Under the pieces are notes generated by a model, which saw nothing but the letters and a program-made list of their open reading frames with translations, searched no databases and had not been told where the DNA came from. Shown one piece after another: positions 18,165 to 49,656 of a stretch of DNA of 64,000 nucleotides (positions are counted from its first letter, which is position 1; the number at the start of each line of letters is the position of its first letter). Both the position numbers and the translations under genes were made by a program. Origin of the DNA: Lentzea aerocolonigenes (GTDB taxonomy: Bacteria > Actinomycetota > Actinomycetes > Mycobacteriales > Pseudonocardiaceae); contig NZ_BBOJ01000016.1 in assembly GCF_000974445.1 (NCBI RefSeq), positions 186,001-250,000 of the forward strand, in the 5' to 3' direction.

Positions 18165-18587
18165 TCAGTGACCCCCAACCAGGTCGGAGATCGTGCGCTC
18201 CATCATGAAGTAGAAGCCGGGGATCATCACGACGACCCAGACGGCCAGCACGGTCCAGAGCATGACCCGCTGGTACTTGGCGCCCTTCTCCCAGAAGTCG
18301 ACCAGCATGACCCGGATGCCGTTCAGCGCGTGGTAGAGCACCGCGCCGACGAGGCCGACCTCGAAGAGGTTCACGACCGGGTTCTTGTAGGTCTCGATCA
18401 CCGCGTCGTACGCGTTCGGTGACACCCGCACGAGTGCGGTGTCGAGCACGTGGGTGAAGAGGAAGAAGAACGTGAGGACACCGGTGATCCGGTGGGCGAC
18501 CCAGGACCACATGCCCAGATCACCGCGGTAGAGCGTCCCACCCCCTCGGGTGGTGCCCGACCGCTCGGGTGCGCCTGCGCTGGTCAT
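18165..18587 (-). CDS. sdhC: Succinate dehydrogenase cytochrome b subunit SdhC
   Basis: This 140-residue cytochrome b-type anchor is the first gene of the sdhCDAB operon. The family signature SWVAHRITGVL is present with H32, followed by H46 (FTHVL) and H86 (YHALNGIRV); H86 is the likely axial haem ligand. Three membrane helices are predicted. The start is the ATG at 18587. A non-coding region of 601 bp upstream, to the transporter lipoprotein gene, should contain the operon promoter, but no clear -10/-35 pair was picked out. Confidence 0.94.
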   Translation of the reverse strand: MTSAGAPERSGTTRGGGTLYRGDLGMWSWVAHRITGVLTFFFLFTHVLDTALVRVSPNAYDAVIETYKNPVVNLFEVGLVGAVLYHALNGIRVMLVDFWEKGAKYQRVMLWTVLAVWVVVMIPGFYFMMERTISDLVGGH

Positions 18588-19188
18588 GCGCCGCGGCCTC
18601 CAACGTCAGTGGTGGTGGTCGGTGAACAGTTCTGCCCGACCATGACCGGAAAATCCTAGTCCCGCACGTTGGAACCAACCCAGCAGGCGCACCCGCTCTG
18701 TGATCGATGAGACACGCTGTCGATCGGCCAAGCGGTCTTTATCGATCCCGAAATGCGGTCCACGCCACATCCGAAGTGCACGCGGGGAGCTTTCGTTCGC
18801 ATGGAGCGCACGAAGGGGCCCCGCGTGCCGTCCGCGAAATGGAGGACGGCGGCCCAGGACCTCCGCCTTGGTCCGGGCCGCCGTCGTGGCAAGGGCACTT
18901 GCCGACCTGTACACGGCGGAGAGGGCGCGATCGGTTCAACGTCGGGTCGTCGGCGCGCGGAACTGGGCCGTTTGGACGACGATCAGTGACGGGGAAGCGG
19001 CCGAAGGGGACGTTTCGCCACGCGCCGAACACGAGTGATCACCAAAGGTGCGGCCAAAGCGTCGAATGCGTAACCGATAGGGGTCTTTGTAGGTGCTCGC
19101 CGCAACGTGTCTGGTTACTAAGAGGTACGGTGCGCCGTCTAGAACCCAACAACGTCGTTGGGGAGGAACCTCAGGGAGGAGACGAGCC
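18588..19188. other. 601-bp divergent intergenic region (sdhC / BMP lipoprotein)
   Basis: There is no convincing gene here; short open frames are GC artefacts and coincide with the palindromic repeat at 18779-18827. The right end holds CCCAAC/GTTGGG arms (19145-19162) a few bases before the ribosome site AGGGAGGAG (19173-19181) of the lipoprotein gene, which could be an operator or a leader hairpin. Promoters for both operons must lie here. Confidence 0.5.
18779..18827 (+). repeat. 49-bp palindromic repeat, copy A
   Basis: This imperfect inverted repeat begins CACGCGGGGAGCTTTCGT and ends GGGGCCCCGCGTG, so outer arms CACGCGGGG / CCCCGCGTG pair perfectly and the inner parts pair partly. A second copy, in inverted orientation and of identical length, is at 48951-48999; by eye about 40 of 49 positions agree. 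It lies in a divergent intergenic region, so it is not simply a terminator. Confidence 0.7.
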
Positions 19189-20334
19189 GTGCGTCGTCGT
19201 ATGCGTGGCGTCGCGGTCGCCGCGATCGCGCTCACCAGCGTGATGACTATGGCCGCCTGTGCGAAGGACTCGGGTGGCGGTAGCAACACCTCGAACAACG
19301 GCAGTGGTGCCGCTTGCGAGTACGCCACGCCTCCCACTGCGCCCGCCACCTCGAACACCAGCGCGGCCGCCGGTGACAAGGTGGACGGCAGTGCGCTGAA
19401 GGTCGGTCTGGCCTACGACATCGGTGGTCGTGGCGACGCGTCGTTCAACGACTCCGCCGCCGCCGGTCTGGACAAGGCCATCACGGACATGGGCATCAAG
19501 AAGGAGAACACGCGCGAGCTCTCCGCTGCCCCGAACGAGGACGAGGCGGCGAAGCAGACCCGTCTGCGCCAGCTCGCGTCCGAGGGCTTCAACCCGATCA
19601 TCGGTGTCGGCTTCGCCTACGCCGAGTCGATGAAGCTCGTCGCCGCGGAGTTCCCGAACGTCAAGTTCGGCCTGGTCGACTCGGCCGTGGACGGTGCCAC
19701 CAACGTCACGCCGCTGCTGTTCGCCGAGCAGGAGGGCTCCTTCCTCGCCGGTGTCATCGCCGCGTACCAGAGCAAGAAGTGCCACGTGGGCTTCGTCGGC
19801 GGCGTCGAGATCCCGCTGATCCAGAAGTTCGAGGCCGGCTACTTCCAGGGTGCCAAGGCCGCCGCGCCGAAGATCGAGATCGAGAAGAAGTACATCACCC
19901 CGGCCGGTGACTTCACCGGCTTCCAGGACGCCCCGAAGGGTCAGGAAGCCGCGAAGGGCCAGATCGACAAGGGCGCCGACGTGATCTACCAGGCCGCGGG
20001 CGCCTCCGGCAAGGGCATCTTCTCTGCCGCCAAGCAGGCCGGCGTGCTGGCGATCGGTGTCGACTCCGACCAGTACAACCAGGCGACCGTCGCCGACACC
20101 AAGGACGTCATCGTGTCGTCCATGCTCAAGCGCGTCGACGTCGCGGTCTACGACTACATCAGGGCCGTCGCCAAGAACGACCTCGCGTCGCTGCCGAAGG
20201 TCTTCGACCTGAAGGTGAACGGTGTCGGTTACGCCACGTCCGGTGGCAAGATCGACGCCAAGCTGCAGGGCATCCTCGAGGGCTACAAGGCCCAGATCAT
20301 CGAGGGCAAGATCACGGTCAAGGACAAGCCGTAG
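19189..20334 (+). CDS. BMP-family nucleoside-binding lipoprotein (PnrA/BmpA-like)
   Basis: This 381-residue substrate-binding lipoprotein of a nucleoside-type ABC importer carries a lipobox ending VMTMAAC with the modified Cys at residue 24. A Gly/Ser/Asn-rich linker and the BMP fold follow, including GLAYDIGGRGDASFNDSA, where the DxGGxxDxSFN motif is the family hallmark. The GTG at 19189 is chosen over upstream starts because AGGGAGGAG sits 7 nt before it and the signal peptide then starts at once. A strong hairpin separates it from the ATPase gene. The adjoining cdd and deoA argue for nucleosides as ligands, which is inference. Confidence 0.93.
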   Translation: MRRRMRGVAVAAIALTSVMTMAACAKDSGGGSNTSNNGSGAACEYATPPTAPATSNTSAAAGDKVDGSALKVGLAYDIGGRGDASFNDSAAAGLDKAITDMGIKKENTRELSAAPNEDEAAKQTRLRQLASEGFNPIIGVGFAYAESMKLVAAEFPNVKFGLVDSAVDGATNVTPLLFAEQEGSFLAGVIAAYQSKKCHVGFVGGVEIPLIQKFEAGYFQGAKAAAPKIEIEKKYITPAGDFTGFQDAPKGQEAAKGQIDKGADVIYQAAGASGKGIFSAAKQAGVLAIGVDSDQYNQATVADTKDVIVSSMLKRVDVAVYDYIRAVAKNDLASLPKVFDLKVNGVGYATSGGKIDAKLQGILEGYKAQIIEGKITVKDKP

Positions 20335-30638: not shown

Positions 30639-30667
30639 CAAGCGCAACCTGCCCTGCTCAAACGAAA

Positions 30668-30713
30668 CGCGGGAGCCCCGCGTACCCCGGAGGGTTACGT
30701 GGGGCTCCCGCGT
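30668..30713. terminator. Strong hairpin upstream of GntR gene, after the 407-residue ORF promoter side
   Basis: Arms ACGCGGGAGCCCCGCGTA and TACGTGGGGCTCCCGCGT pair nearly perfectly, with CCC/GGG and a few bases in the loop. It lies 26 bp beyond the stop of the minus-strand 407-residue gene's neighbour side and 48 bp before the GntR start, so it terminates no obvious gene cleanly. The ACGCGGG/CCCGCGT theme recalls the 49-bp palindromic repeat. Confidence 0.55.
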
Positions 30714-30739
30714 GACTTTCAGAATGCGGAAAGGAGCGG

Positions 30740-31963
30740 TCAGTTGACGTTGAGCCGGTCCTCGAACGTCGCTTGCAGCGCGCGGAACGCGGCCACCTCG
30801 GCGTCGTACGGAGCGGACGGCGCGAGACGGGTCGGGTCCGGCGCGACCACGAACGACACGAGCCAGCCCAGCGACTCCGAGGAGGCGAGCGCGTCCTTCA
30901 CGGACTCGTCCTCGGCCCACTCGCCCGCGTCCTCGAACAGCTCGACGGCGAGGTCCAGCTGCTGCGGGTCGAGGGAGTCGGGGCCCTCCTCCATGTCCTC
31001 GGCGATGCCGGTCAGCACGTAGACGTTCTCGTCGTCCACGTCGACGTCGAGCTCGCCCGCGGTGGCCTTGACCTTCACGTCGTTCCACGTCTCGACCTCG
31101 GCCAGGTCGTGCTCGTCGTTCTCGGCGACGAAACGGCTCAGGCCACGCGCGGAGGTGAAGACCTCGATCTTGCCCCGGCGGCCCAGGAACACCGGGTCGT
31201 CGCCGAGGTAGCAGCGCAGCGTGTAGAACTCGCCGGCGGACGTGATGATCTTGATGGGGTCGATGCCCGCCTCGGCCCAGAAGCCGGTGGGCTCGGCCTT
31301 CTCCTCGTCGGAGTCCTCGTCGTCGGAGCCCGCGTCGACGGCAGCCGCGGCGGCGGCCGCCTCCTCCAGCGCGGCGAGCTCCTCCTGCGCGACGGCGAGC
31401 TCCTTCTCCGGCACCTCGGGCGTGCTCACGACGCTGTCGATCGCGTCGAGGACCTCGTCCCACTTCTCGGAGACGACCTCGGACAGCTCGTCCCACAGCT
31501 TGGCGCCGTCACGGCCGCTGAACGGCAGCGTGCCCTGCGGCAGCAGCGAGAAGCCCTCCGCGGAGTCGAGCACCTCGTGGACCTTCTCCAGGTCGCAGAC
31601 GTCCGCGAGGGCGCGCACGATCGCGATGACGTCGGCGAGCTCACCGATCGTCCAGGTGTCCGGGTCCTCGGCGATCAGCTCGGGCACACCGACGAGGTCG
31701 AACTGGTGGTTGTCGTCCGGCGAGAGGTCCGCGACGCCCAGCGACGGCACGATCGGCCACGCAGGGTGATCGGTGAGGTCGTGCTCCTCGGCGGTGCGCA
31801 CGAAGGCGGCGAGATGCGCGGCGTCGGGGAAGACGAACAGGTCTTCCTCGTCACCGAGGAACGCCTCCCACTCCTCGCCCTTCTCGCGCCAGCGGGGTGC
31901 CCACAGCGTGACCACGTCACCCTGCGTCAGCCCCAGCTCGATGGGGACGATGTCCTGCGCCAT
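30740..31963 (-). CDS. Conserved acidic actinobacterial protein, unknown function
   Basis: This is a 407-residue soluble, very acidic protein. The halves look similar: WAPRWREKGEEWEAFLGDEEDLFVFPD near residue 22-48 resembles CYLGDDPVFLGRRGKIEVF near 255-272, each followed by a residue run about Phe-Val-x-x-x-E-x-HDL (AAFVRTAEEHDL and SRFVAENDEHDL), so an internal duplication is likely. The two are joined by an Ala/Glu/Asp-rich linker (about 195-235). Homologues in related actinomycetes are often labelled primosomal protein without visible support. The start is the ATG at 31963. It ends before the hairpin at 30668-30713. Function unknown. Confidence 0.8.
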   Translation of the reverse strand: MAQDIVPIELGLTQGDVVTLWAPRWREKGEEWEAFLGDEEDLFVFPDAAHLAAFVRTAEEHDLTDHPAWPIVPSLGVADLSPDDNHQFDLVGVPELIAEDPDTWTIGELADVIAIVRALADVCDLEKVHEVLDSAEGFSLLPQGTLPFSGRDGAKLWDELSEVVSEKWDEVLDAIDSVVSTPEVPEKELAVAQEELAALEEAAAAAAAVDAGSDDEDSDEEKAEPTGFWAEAGIDPIKIITSAGEFYTLRCYLGDDPVFLGRRGKIEVFTSARGLSRFVAENDEHDLAEVETWNDVKVKATAGELDVDVDDENVYVLTGIAEDMEEGPDSLDPQQLDLAVELFEDAGEWAEDESVKDALASSESLGWLVSFVVAPDPTRLAPSAPYDAEVAAFRALQATFEDRLNVN

Positions 31964-41807: not shown

Positions 41808-42430
41808 TCTCGGTCCTCATCGCCGACGACCAGGAGATGGTCCGGGTCGGCTTCCGGATGATCCTCGAGAAGCAGCAGGACATCACCGTCGTCGCGGACG
41901 TGGCGGACGGCATCTCGGCCGTCACCGCCGCGCGTGAGCACAAGCCCGACGTGGCGTTGCTGGACATCCGCATGCCCGGTCTGGACGGACTGGAGGTCAC
42001 CAAGAAGCTCTCGCCCACGACCAAGGTCGTCGTGGTGACGACCTTCGACCTCGACGAGTACGTGCACACGGCGCTGGAGAACGGGGCGTCCGGCTTCCTG
42101 ACCAAGGACGCCGGCCCGGCCCTGCTCGTGGAGGCGGTGCGGGCAGCGGCGCAGGGCAACGCGTTGATCTCGCCGCAGGTGACCGTGCGGATGCTGGAGC
42201 ACTTCGCGCGGCCCGCCGAGCGGCCGGATCTCGGGCTGCTCACCGCCCGCGAACAGGACGTGGTGCGGGAGGTGGCGCGGGGCCTGAGCAACCAGGAGAT
42301 CGCGTCGGAGCTCTACCTGTCGCTGTCGACGGTGAAGACGCACCTCGCGTCCGTGCAGACGAAGCTCAACGTCAAAAACCGCGTAGGCATCGCCTCCTGG
42401 GCCTGGCGAGCAGGCCTGGTAAACACCTGA
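41804..42430 (+). CDS. NarL/FixJ-family response regulator
   Basis: This 208-residue regulator has a receiver domain (1-120) with the acidic pair in VLIADDQEMVRVGF, the phosphorylated Asp in VALLDIRMPGLDGLE and the conserved Lys in FLTKDAGP. A LuxR-type helix-turn-helix follows (145-205) with LTAREQDVVREVARGLSNQE and LSTVKTHLASVQTKL. It is coupled to the sensor kinase by a GTGA overlap. The stop lies within a long palindrome that ends the operon. The regulon probably includes the divergent exporter. Confidence 0.95.
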   Translation: MISVLIADDQEMVRVGFRMILEKQQDITVVADVADGISAVTAAREHKPDVALLDIRMPGLDGLEVTKKLSPTTKVVVVTTFDLDEYVHTALENGASGFLTKDAGPALLVEAVRAAAQGNALISPQVTVRMLEHFARPAERPDLGLLTAREQDVVREVARGLSNQEIASELYLSLSTVKTHLASVQTKLNVKNRVGIASWAWRAGLVNT

Positions 42431-42489
42431 AAACGATGAAGGGTCCCTTCATCCACGTGAGGTGGATGAAGGGACCCTTCATCGTTTCA
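42428..42489. terminator. Bidirectional 28-bp-arm palindrome
   Basis: The left arm TGAAAACGATGAAGGGTCCC... (42428-42456) pairs with the right arm ending in ...CATCGTTTCA (42462-42489) with a single bulged A and a 5-nt loop. Each arm also contains self-complementary GAAGGGTCCCTTC. It fills the whole gap between the convergent response-regulator and ALDH stops. Confidence 0.8.
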
Positions 42490-42491
42490 AG

Positions 42492-48873: not shown

Positions 48874-48950
48874 GACCTTCGCGGGGGAGGCGGCATGCGG
48901 TCGCAGGAGGCTAACCGGTTACCTCTTCCAGCGGAAGTCGTTCTTTGTGG

Positions 48951-48999
48951 CACGCGGGGCCCTTGCGCGCGCTCCTGGAGTACGAAAGCTCCCCGCGTA
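48951..48999 (-). repeat. 49-bp palindromic repeat, copy B
   Basis: On the minus strand this reads TACGCGGGGAGCTTTCGT at one end and AAGGGCCCCGCGTG at the other, matching copy A at 18779-18827 in order, length and most bases. The outer arms pair as a hairpin. It sits between two minus-strand genes, upstream of the MatA-like gene and downstream of the DUF1707 gene. Confidence 0.7.
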
Positions 49000-49011
49000 C
49001 TCTCCGCAACG

Positions 49012-49656
49012 TCAGTCGAGCAGTTCGCGCAAGATCTGCGACTTCTTCCGCTTGGGCCCCTTGACCTCGACACCGCCCATGATCGCGAGTCCGGTGATGC
49101 GCACGGTGGGAGCACCGGGAATGTGCCGCCGCCCCGGCGCGCGGTCCTCGAAGGCGCCCATGAACCCGAACCCGTCGACCTTCACGTTGATGTCGTCCGG
49201 CACGCGGATCTCGACACCGCCCCAGAACGCGAAGCAGCTGATGGTGACCTCGGCCTCGGCGAAGCTCGCGTGGGTCAGGTCGATCTCGATCCCGCCCATG
49301 ACCGCGACGGCGTTGTGCATCCGCGGGACGACCCACTGGCCCTTGCGGTTGACGCCGGACCAGAAGGCCACCGACACCGCGCTGCCCGGCTCGCCGCCGA
49401 TGCGGTCGCTCAGCGCGGGCTGGTACTGCGGCACCGCCGGCGTGTGCGGCAGGCCGCTCAGCACCAGGTCGGCGGTGATGGGAGCGAGCTCGCCGTAGGT
49501 CTTGGCGGCGTAGACGGCCGCGAGCCGCTCGTCCAGCTCGTGGATGTCGAGGCGCCCCTCTGCCGTCGCCTGGTGCAGCACCTGCGCGATCCGTTCCCGG
49601 TCCGCGTCCGAGGCGCGCATGTGACTCTGGTCAGCCGGTACCAGCTCGTCGCTCAC
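49012..49656 (-). CDS. DUF1707 / LiaF-like envelope protein
   Basis: This is a 214-residue soluble protein. An N-terminal DUF1707 (SHOCT-like) domain occupies about residues 12-62, where RASDADRERIAQVLHQATAEGRLDIHELDERL is the hallmark. The C-terminal part (about 85-205) is a beta-rich LiaF-type domain with repeated GG-hydrophobic turns: VAVMGGIEIDL, FAFWGGVEIRVP, FGFMGAFEDRA and LAIMGGVEVKG. LiaF-type domains modulate cell-envelope stress signalling in Firmicutes; in actinomycetes the role is unknown. The start is the GTG at 49656. It is followed by palindromic repeat copy B. Confidence 0.88.
   Translation of the reverse strand: MSDELVPADQSHMRASDADRERIAQVLHQATAEGRLDIHELDERLAAVYAAKTYGELAPITADLVLSGLPHTPAVPQYQPALSDRIGGEPGSAVSVAFWSGVNRKGQWVVPRMHNAVAVMGGIEIDLTHASFAEAEVTISCFAFWGGVEIRVPDDINVKVDGFGFMGAFEDRAPGRRHIPGAPTVRITGLAIMGGVEVKGPKRKKSQILRELLD

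What the first reader, a model, noticed from the sequence alone, without database searches (positions are those of the whole stretch)
18779..18827. Dispersed 49-bp palindromic repeat, copy A
The sequence is an imperfect hairpin with CACGCGGGG/CCCCGCGTG ends. A copy of exactly the same length and about 40 of 49 identical bases lies 30 kb away on the opposite strand (48951-48999). Both are intergenic, and neither position is explained as a plain terminator, since copy A sits between divergent genes. This looks like a REP/MITE-type repeat family.
Basis: seen in the sequence. Interest (0 to 1): 0.6.

Follow-up and report, generated by a model that had tools for sequence, protein, structure and literature searches.

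The report
RAYT-less REPIN-like repeats in Lentzea
The 49-base palindrome is one of roughly a hundred copies of a small hairpin repeat that appears to have spread separately through genomes of one genus of soil bacteria (Lentzea), settling mostly just behind the ends of genes, and we found no sign of the enzyme that moves similar repeats in other bacteria.

Summary
Confirmed and extended. The two palindromes match at 41 of 49 bases. They belong to a dispersed family: 90 sites by covariance model in the source genome (capped list, merged by me) and 108 by a looser pattern, control 0. The genus is Lentzea. Outside it, 115 genomes of the same family have 0-4 looser matches each, controls 0-3. The window holds a third, divergent copy at 30667-30713.

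The unit is a 17-nt imperfect palindrome. The element is an inverted pair at fixed spacing (17+13+17 = 47 nt; about 60 nt with conserved edges). It can fold as one long hairpin or two small ones, and covariation gives some support to each.

Copies lie on both strands, mostly within 20 nt of stop codons (52 of 73). Orthologous sites show bare junctions, other family members, or ordinary terminator-like hairpins. Copy number is patchy: one sister pair has 69 and 1.

Anatomy and placement are REPIN-like, but no RAYT tracks the family: Y1 transposase occurs in 5 of 12 element-rich and 6 of 12 element-poor genomes. Best reading: a non-autonomous REPIN-like element with unknown mover, probably also working as a two-way terminator. 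Mobility is inferred; termination is untested.

The parts
18773..18834 (+). Copy A, whole element with conserved edges (62-nt model match)
   Evidence: CM R1, 84.3 bits, E 1.1e-16 in the window; R1 was built with this copy among its 28 sequences
18780..18796 (+). Copy A, conserved 17-nt unit ACGCGGGGAGCTTTCGT
   Evidence: 0 mismatches to ACGCGGGGNNCNNNCGT; positions invariant or nearly so in 90 genome sites
18797..18809 (.). Copy A, 13-nt spacer between the two units
   Evidence: Fixed 17+13+17 geometry
18810..18826 (-). Copy A, second inverted 17-nt unit ACGCGGGGCCCCTTCGT
   Evidence: 0 mismatches to the unit pattern on the minus strand
48944..49005 (-). Copy B, whole element with conserved edges
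   Evidence: CM R1, 73.5 bits, E 2.7e-14; in R1's training set. No exact half-site string in the 175 nt before the orthologous anchor in any of 23 other Lentzea genomes
48982..48998 (-). Copy B, conserved 17-nt unit
   Evidence: 0 mismatches
48952..48968 (+). Copy B, second inverted 17-nt unit
   Evidence: 1 mismatch
30659..30720 (-). Third, divergent copy (units 30667-30683 and 30697-30713, same 17+13+17 geometry), 26 nt behind the stop of the gene 30740-31963
   Evidence: CM R1, 26.8 bits, E 6e-4 in the window, not in the training set; units with 0 and 1 mismatch; MFE -45.6
18165..18587 (-). Left neighbour of copy A: succinate dehydrogenase cytochrome subunit gene
   Evidence: Pfam Sdh_cyt E 2.9e-20
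19189..20334 (+). Right neighbour of copy A: PnrA-like (Bmp) substrate-binding protein gene
   Evidence: Pfam Bmp E 3.3e-53
49012..49656 (-). Gene behind whose stop codon copy B lies (DUF1707 / LiaF-like C-terminal)
   Evidence: Pfam E 5.3e-23 and 1.4e-8

Best explanation
The palindromes are members of a genus-restricted family of REPIN-like, non-autonomous dispersed elements in Lentzea. The basic unit is a 17-nt imperfect palindrome, ACG-CGGGGNNCNNN-CGT, whose short stem is extended by its flanks; the element is two such units inverted to each other at a fixed 13-nt spacing (47 nt; about 60 nt with its edges). As single-stranded DNA or RNA it can fold either as one long hairpin or as two small hairpins, as proposed for REPINs. 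Shown by comparison: copies are gained as clean additions of about 60 nt in some species and absent in others, and copy number differs sharply between sister species. Inferred: single-strand-specific transposition in trans by an enzyme that we did not identify (not a recognisable Y1 transposase/RAYT), with extra units added in 30-nt steps by the same process or by template switching. Copies survive mostly just behind stop codons, where they do little damage and, as long GC-rich hairpins that stand where related species have ordinary terminator hairpins, probably stop transcription from both sides (inferred, untested).
For: Copy number and dispersal. Fixed geometry: 48 of 50 listed source-genome matches are exactly 47 nt although 21-51 was allowed; unit offsets 30, 60, 90, 120. 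Fold: 5' half hairpin in 90 sites 688 Watson-Crick cells vs 616+-9 shuffled, maximum 647 of 1000; long hairpin in 44 looser copies of two other genomes 480 vs 434+-8.5, maximum 462. Gain: at C55:424991, 10 of 22 genomes have bare overlapping or abutting stop codons where G014 and G000 carry an insert of about 59 nt that leaves TGA stops on both strands; copy A site 5 of 24 genomes; copy B 1 of 24. Patchiness: sisters G006/G015 69 vs 1, G018/G003 41 vs 2. Placement: 38 convergent, 35 tandem, 12 divergent, 5 overlapping a predicted gene; 52 of 73 within 20 nt of a stop; tandem 21 of 35 vs 6.5 expected, at most 15 in 5000 draws. Ordinary terminator-like hairpins at the same site in relatives: C19:14311 vs L117, C55:190828 vs L107, C43:174890 vs L126 and L151, C55:159703 and C55:273926 vs G005.
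Against: No mover was found, and no element was caught moving; all mobility evidence is comparative. In the 90 source-genome sites the long hairpin does not exceed its shuffles (1846 vs 1822+-12, maximum 1867) and the 3' half shows no covariation (624 vs 617+-10); in G001 alone (20 copies) the long hairpin does not exceed them either (195 vs 185, maximum 209). Shuffles ignore relatedness. No U-tract: 0 of 90 have 5 or more T in the 10 nt behind the hairpin on either strand, so canonical intrinsic termination is not indicated. 12 of 90 copies, copy A among them, lie between divergent genes where a terminator is not needed. Most empty sites are not clean to the base, and no target duplication was seen at the one that is.
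Confidence: 0.62

Rival explanations
1. REP/REPIN family in the strict sense, mobilised by a RAYT that has been lost, is too diverged for Pfam Y1_Tnp, or sits in unsequenced parts or other strains.
For: Architecture, placement, supply of stop codons and two alternative folds agree with REPs/REPINs as described in PMC3116915 and PMC3733652. Y1_Tnp genes do occur in 11 of 24 Lentzea genomes, two of them damaged or split in the source genome.
Against: Element-rich genomes G001, G008, G009, G010, G016, G018 and G023 have no Y1_Tnp match at E 0.001 although G010 is one complete contig; 5 of 12 rich and 6 of 12 poor genomes have one. None of 21 Y1_Tnp loci holds a unit (one weak match, G006:C3:1330288, had no locus and was not examined).
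Confidence: 0.15
2. Only terminators: a favoured hairpin sequence that arises or is copied between gene ends by gene conversion because it terminates well, without being a mobile element.
For: Strong 3'-end placement; relatives have other hairpins at the same site; different family members, even inverted, at orthologous sites, as repeated conversion would give.
Against: The 5' arm is almost invariant in sequence, not only in pairing (CGCGGGG and TT.CG at 90 of 90 positions or nearly so), spacing is fixed, 12 divergent and 5 within-gene sites exist, and bare stop-codon junctions gained a whole element. Neutral terminators need no shared sequence.
Confidence: 0.12
3. A binding site for a dimeric DNA- or RNA-binding protein (chromosome organisation or a 3'-end regulator), duplicated because it is useful.
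For: Rigid 17+13+17 spacing and 30-nt period; invariant loop sequence CGGGGAGCTTT in most of the 90 sites.
Against: Near absence (0-3 looser matches) in several Lentzea species, including close sisters of rich ones, argues against a core function. Fixed spacing also follows from common descent.
Confidence: 0.08

Closest known systems
REPINs (inverted REP doublets; Bertels and Rainey 2011, PMC3116915, passages read)
   Same: Inverted pair of short conserved palindromic units with a less conserved spacer; compensatory changes; long hairpin or two-hairpin ('clover') fold; mostly extragenic; about 100 copies; strong genome-to-genome differences.
   Different: No RAYT found with or correlated to the family; different unit sequence without a GTAG-type tag; 17+13+17 nt with a 30-nt period, against 71 nt between the 16-mers of the GI REPIN; an actinobacterial genus.
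CGTC-tagged REPs (Di Nocera et al. 2013, PMC3733652, abstract, passages and section 15 read)
   Same: No dedicated transposase; inverted dimers predominate; behind gene ends, convergent sites within 20 bp of both ORFs; some copies in genes.
   Different: Those have a CGTC tag, 8-9 bp stems, 4-5 nt loops and a CCA tail; here a 17-nt unit with 11-nt loop and flank-extended stem. CGTC occurs at some right edges (CCGTCAG) but not as a constant unpaired tag.
GTAG-tagged REPs and BIMEs (PMC2817692 and PMC3733652, passages read)
   Same: Placement behind stop codons; element ends supply stop codons to neighbours (TAG there, TGA here); clusters with alternating orientation.
   Different: No GTAG tag and no RAYT gene flanked by units.
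MITEs with inverted ends
   Same: Short, non-coding, dispersed, palindromic, patchy presence at orthologous sites.
   Different: Whole element is the palindrome; no target duplication at the one clean site; no parent transposon with these ends was identified.

Membership tests
REP/REPIN with RAYT | Many extragenic copies of a short palindromic unit | tested here: met
   90 sites by CM, 108 by looser pattern, control 0; 85 of 90 outside predicted genes
REP/REPIN with RAYT | Units arranged as inverted doublets able to fold, with compensatory changes | tested here: met
   Fixed inverted 17+13+17 geometry; covariation partly significant
REP/REPIN with RAYT | Cognate RAYT (Y1 transposase) in the genome, flanked by units, tracking copy number | tested here: not met
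   5 of 12 rich and 6 of 12 poor genomes have Y1_Tnp; no unit in 21 Y1_Tnp loci
REP/REPIN with RAYT | Excision or transposition intermediates observed | not testable with these tools
   Needs population sequencing reads
GTAG- or CGTC-tagged REP super-families | Constant unpaired GTAG or CGTC tag at one end of the unit | tested here: not met
   Column counts of 90 sites show no such constant tag
MITE | Target-site duplication | tested here: inconclusive
   None at C55:424991; other sites not resolved to the base
MITE | Parent autonomous transposon with the same ends | tested here: inconclusive
   Two inverted pairs about 1.1 and 1.4 kb apart (C18, C44) enclose genes that by eye are not transposases, no family search was run on them; no systematic search
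Intrinsic terminator (L-shaped) | GC-rich hairpin followed by a T run | tested here: not met
   Hairpin yes (mean MFE -37 kcal/mol), T run in 0 of 90 on either strand
Rfam RNA family | Match at gathering score | tested here: not met
   0 matches in the window

The most novel reading that the evidence does not exclude
A self-spreading, portable two-way terminator: a REPIN-like element moved by a single-strand DNA enzyme that is not a Y1 transposase, which inserts at overlapping stop codons of convergent genes (CT|AG), restores a stop codon on each strand from its own ends, and thereby creates a terminator where there was none or replaces an ordinary one.
Probability: 0.25. Interest if true: 0.7.

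Novelty: new variant of a known kind. Interest (0 to 1): 0.42.

Why it matters
REPINs are explained as elements moved by RAYTs. A REPIN-like family that expands and contracts within one genus without a detectable RAYT points either to another mover or to spread without a transposase, and the sister pairs G006/G015 and G018/G003 make that directly testable. It would also be a case where a mobile repeat supplies gene-end hairpins, so that transcript boundaries differ between close species. Our paper searches found no report of it, but they covered open-licence papers only.

Tried and rejected
RAYT as mover: tested by Pfam Y1_Tnp in the source genome and 24 Lentzea genomes, no association. Rfam: nothing. 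Plasmids and phages: copy A (62 nt) has no match at E 1e-5 in either collection. Ordinary intrinsic terminator: no T run. Composite transposon: genes between inverted copies on C18 and C44 looked at by eye only. An early view that only the half hairpin covaries was given up, because the 90-site set had been chosen by likeness to one loop type. Paper searches that returned unrelated papers or none: ('rayt' matched unrelated words). An earlier count gave the bare junction at C55:424991 as 10 of 24; the right figure is 10 of 22, since G003 and G007 gave no result there.

Limits: the list was capped at 150 scored candidates, so weaker copies are missing. Gene borders come from a simple codon-usage caller of my own. 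The named contigs L076-L163 were fetched because they hold the strict pattern, so shared occupancy is enriched by selection. The tree rests on one 3.85-kb locus. In one search several genomes have another gene in front of the anchor, so for them the locus is not fully comparable.

Full report
Observation. The palindrome at 18779-18827 and its counterpart at 48951-48999 are as described: 41 of 49 bases agree after reverse complementing. Copy A lies between divergent genes (sdhC and a Bmp-family substrate-binding protein gene; Pfam), copy B 12 nt behind the stop codon of a DUF1707/LiaF-like gene. A third, divergent copy lies at 30667-30713, 26 nt behind the stop of the gene 30740-31963.

A real family. 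In the source genome (G000, 10.69 Mb, 55 contigs) the 16-nt arm CGCGGGGAGCTTTCGT with up to two mismatches is found 70 times forward and 73 reverse, against 2 and 2 for the reversed pattern. A covariance model from 28 copies gave 150 scored rows, the cap; I merged rows on both strands into 90 sites, two of which overlap by a shared arm. The looser pattern ACGCGGGGN{5,35}CCCCGCGT gives 108, control 0.

Where it occurs. The strict two-arm pattern is in 16 of 24 genomes of the genus and in 11 of 249 genomes sampled from the family, all in one of 46 genera. Contig lengths identify G002 with L. alba NEAU-D13 and G006 with L. californiensis DSM 43393. With the looser pattern, 115 genomes outside the genus have 0-4 matches each, controls 0-3, whereas within the genus counts run from 0 to 147, controls 0-3. 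Copy A has no match in the plasmid or phage collections.

Anatomy. Column counts of the 90 sites put the edges at about 7 nt before and 8 nt behind the 47-nt core, about 60 nt in all. The core is two inverted 17-nt units, ACGCGGGGNNCNNNCGT, with a 13-nt spacer. Of 50 source-genome matches listed for the looser pattern 48 are exactly 47 nt although 21-51 was allowed; of 22 in G001, 20 are. In the fetched loci, which were chosen for holding elements, the gap between ACGCGGGG and CCCCGCGT is 31 nt in 92 of 122, 98 of 117 and 17 of 25 pairs, and most others are 1, 61 or 91-95; unit offsets peak at 30 and repeat at 60, 90 and 120. Chains of units occur, for example three same-direction units about 30 nt apart at C30:107182-107256 and three 32-nt repeats in L147.

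Fold. Each half can fold alone: in the 5' half positions -7 to 1 pair with 13 to 21 around an 11-nt loop. In the 90 sites this half has 688 Watson-Crick cells against 616+-9 in 1000 shuffles, maximum 647; the pair -4/18 alone has 52 Watson-Crick and 28 G-T of 90 against 24.5 expected, in five pair types. The 3' half shows nothing (624 vs 617+-10) and the long hairpin does not exceed its shuffles (1846 vs 1822+-12, maximum 1867). That set was chosen by likeness to one loop type. In 44 copies from G001 and G006 chosen only by the outer eight bases, the long hairpin does covary: 480 vs 434+-8.5, maximum 462; G006 alone 285 vs 260, maximum 280; G001 alone 195 vs 185, maximum 209, not beyond shuffles. 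Shuffles ignore relatedness. Both folds therefore have some support.

Placement. Of 90 sites 38 are between convergent, 35 between tandem and 12 between divergent genes, and 5 overlap a predicted gene. Element-free neighbours in the same stretches are 35 convergent, 193 tandem and 54 divergent pairs. Of 73 sites with a gene end on at least one side, 52 start within 20 nt of a stop codon; placing the elements at random within their own gaps gives 32 on average and at most 42 in 2000 draws. For tandem sites it is 21 of 35 against 6.5, at most 15 in 5000; only 1 of 35 is within 20 nt of a start. Orientation is 18 with and 17 against transcription. There is no T run behind the hairpin (0 of 90 with 5 or more T in 10 nt on either strand).

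Orthologous sites. Copy A's site holds family units in 5 of 24 genomes (G000, G002, G006, G013, G014), in variants that differ beyond simple descent. Copy B's site holds none in the other 23, though several of these have another gene there. At C55:424991, readable in 22 genomes, 6 have family units, 10 have bare stop codons of the two convergent genes (11-17 nt between the aligned flanks), and 6 have other inserts; comparing G014 with the bare state shows an addition of about 59 nt between CT and AG that leaves TGA stops on both strands, with no duplication. At C55:431551, 4 of 24 have family units. Elsewhere relatives carry another family member, at times inverted (C55:431551 vs L152, C43:77560 vs L109), or an ordinary hairpin (C19:14311 vs L117, C55:190828 vs L107, C43:174890 vs L126 and L151; C55:159703 and C55:273926 vs G005). 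At C55:358133 the element is inside a predicted gene in G000; G010 and G023 carry other elements there, G005 and G008 none.

Turnover. On a tree of one 3.85-kb locus, element-rich genomes (19 or more) are not clustered: 7 changes are needed, 8.2 on average for shuffled labels, 137 of 500 shuffles as low; G006 (69) and G015 (1) are sisters, as are G018 (41) and G003 (2).

The mover. Y1_Tnp is found in 11 of 24 genomes: 5 of 12 rich and 6 of 12 poor. Seven rich genomes have none, G010 among them, which is one complete contig. No unit lies in any of the 21 Y1_Tnp loci read; one further weak match had no locus. The source genome's two Y1_Tnp genes look damaged or split. So RAYT mobilisation, the defining partnership of REPs in PMC2817692 and PMC3116915 (passages), was tested and not met.

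Comparison with what is known. The parallels with REPs are close: conv-REPs within 20 bp of both gene ends, ends that supply stop codons, copies in genes (PMC3733652 section 15); inverted doublets with compensatory changes and two alternative folds (PMC3116915). CGTC REPs also lack a dedicated transposase. I therefore say that it works like a REPIN and is REPIN-like in form, but do not file it as a RAYT-REPIN. The paper library holds none of the seven arm strings searched, and brought up no description of the family; subscription papers are not covered.

Verdict. Real, dispersed, genus-restricted and dynamic: well supported. REPIN-like spread by an unknown mover: the best reading, inferred. 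Two-way termination: likely from placement and from the swap with ordinary hairpins, untested.

Noticed in passing
window 18842-18886: A second hairpin, GGACGGCGGCC...GGCCGCCGTC, directly beside copy A between the divergent genes; recognisable in most of the 24 Lentzea genomes aligned, in the arms and in the loop (ACCTCCGCC); possibly an RNA element or the terminator of a small RNA.
   Followed up: no
window 42430-42490: A long near-perfect unrelated hairpin (GATGAAGGGTCCCTTCATC...; MFE -50.7) fills the gap between convergent genes ending at 42430 and 42492; other Lentzea terminator-like hairpins seen also begin GAAGGG.
   Followed up: no
G004:C20 and G017:C23, site orthologous to G000:C55:424991: A different insert, about 165 nt, with inverted ends TAGTGGTGTGGC...CGCCACTA between the same two stop codons, apparently repeating CTAG; looks like a separate MITE using the same junction.
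   Followed up: no
G015:C5 and G022:C22, same site: Longer inserts (about 360-390 nt) that share a strong palindrome GGTGGGGTCCC(A/G)TCACGAG...CTCGTGA(T/C)GGGACCCCACC; another possible repeat family.
   Followed up: no
L147 (L. californiensis), beside the element orthologous to C55:431551: Half-units amplified as a head-to-tail array of 32-nt repeats, three copies.
   Followed up: partly
L084, L104: The strain deposited as Nocardia sp. NRRL S-836 carries the Lentzea-specific element and aligns with the source genome over a shared locus; probably misnamed.
   Followed up: no
G000:C55:358133 and orthologues: Elements of different types lie in the same variable linker of a predicted protein gene in G000, G010 and G023.
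   Followed up: partly
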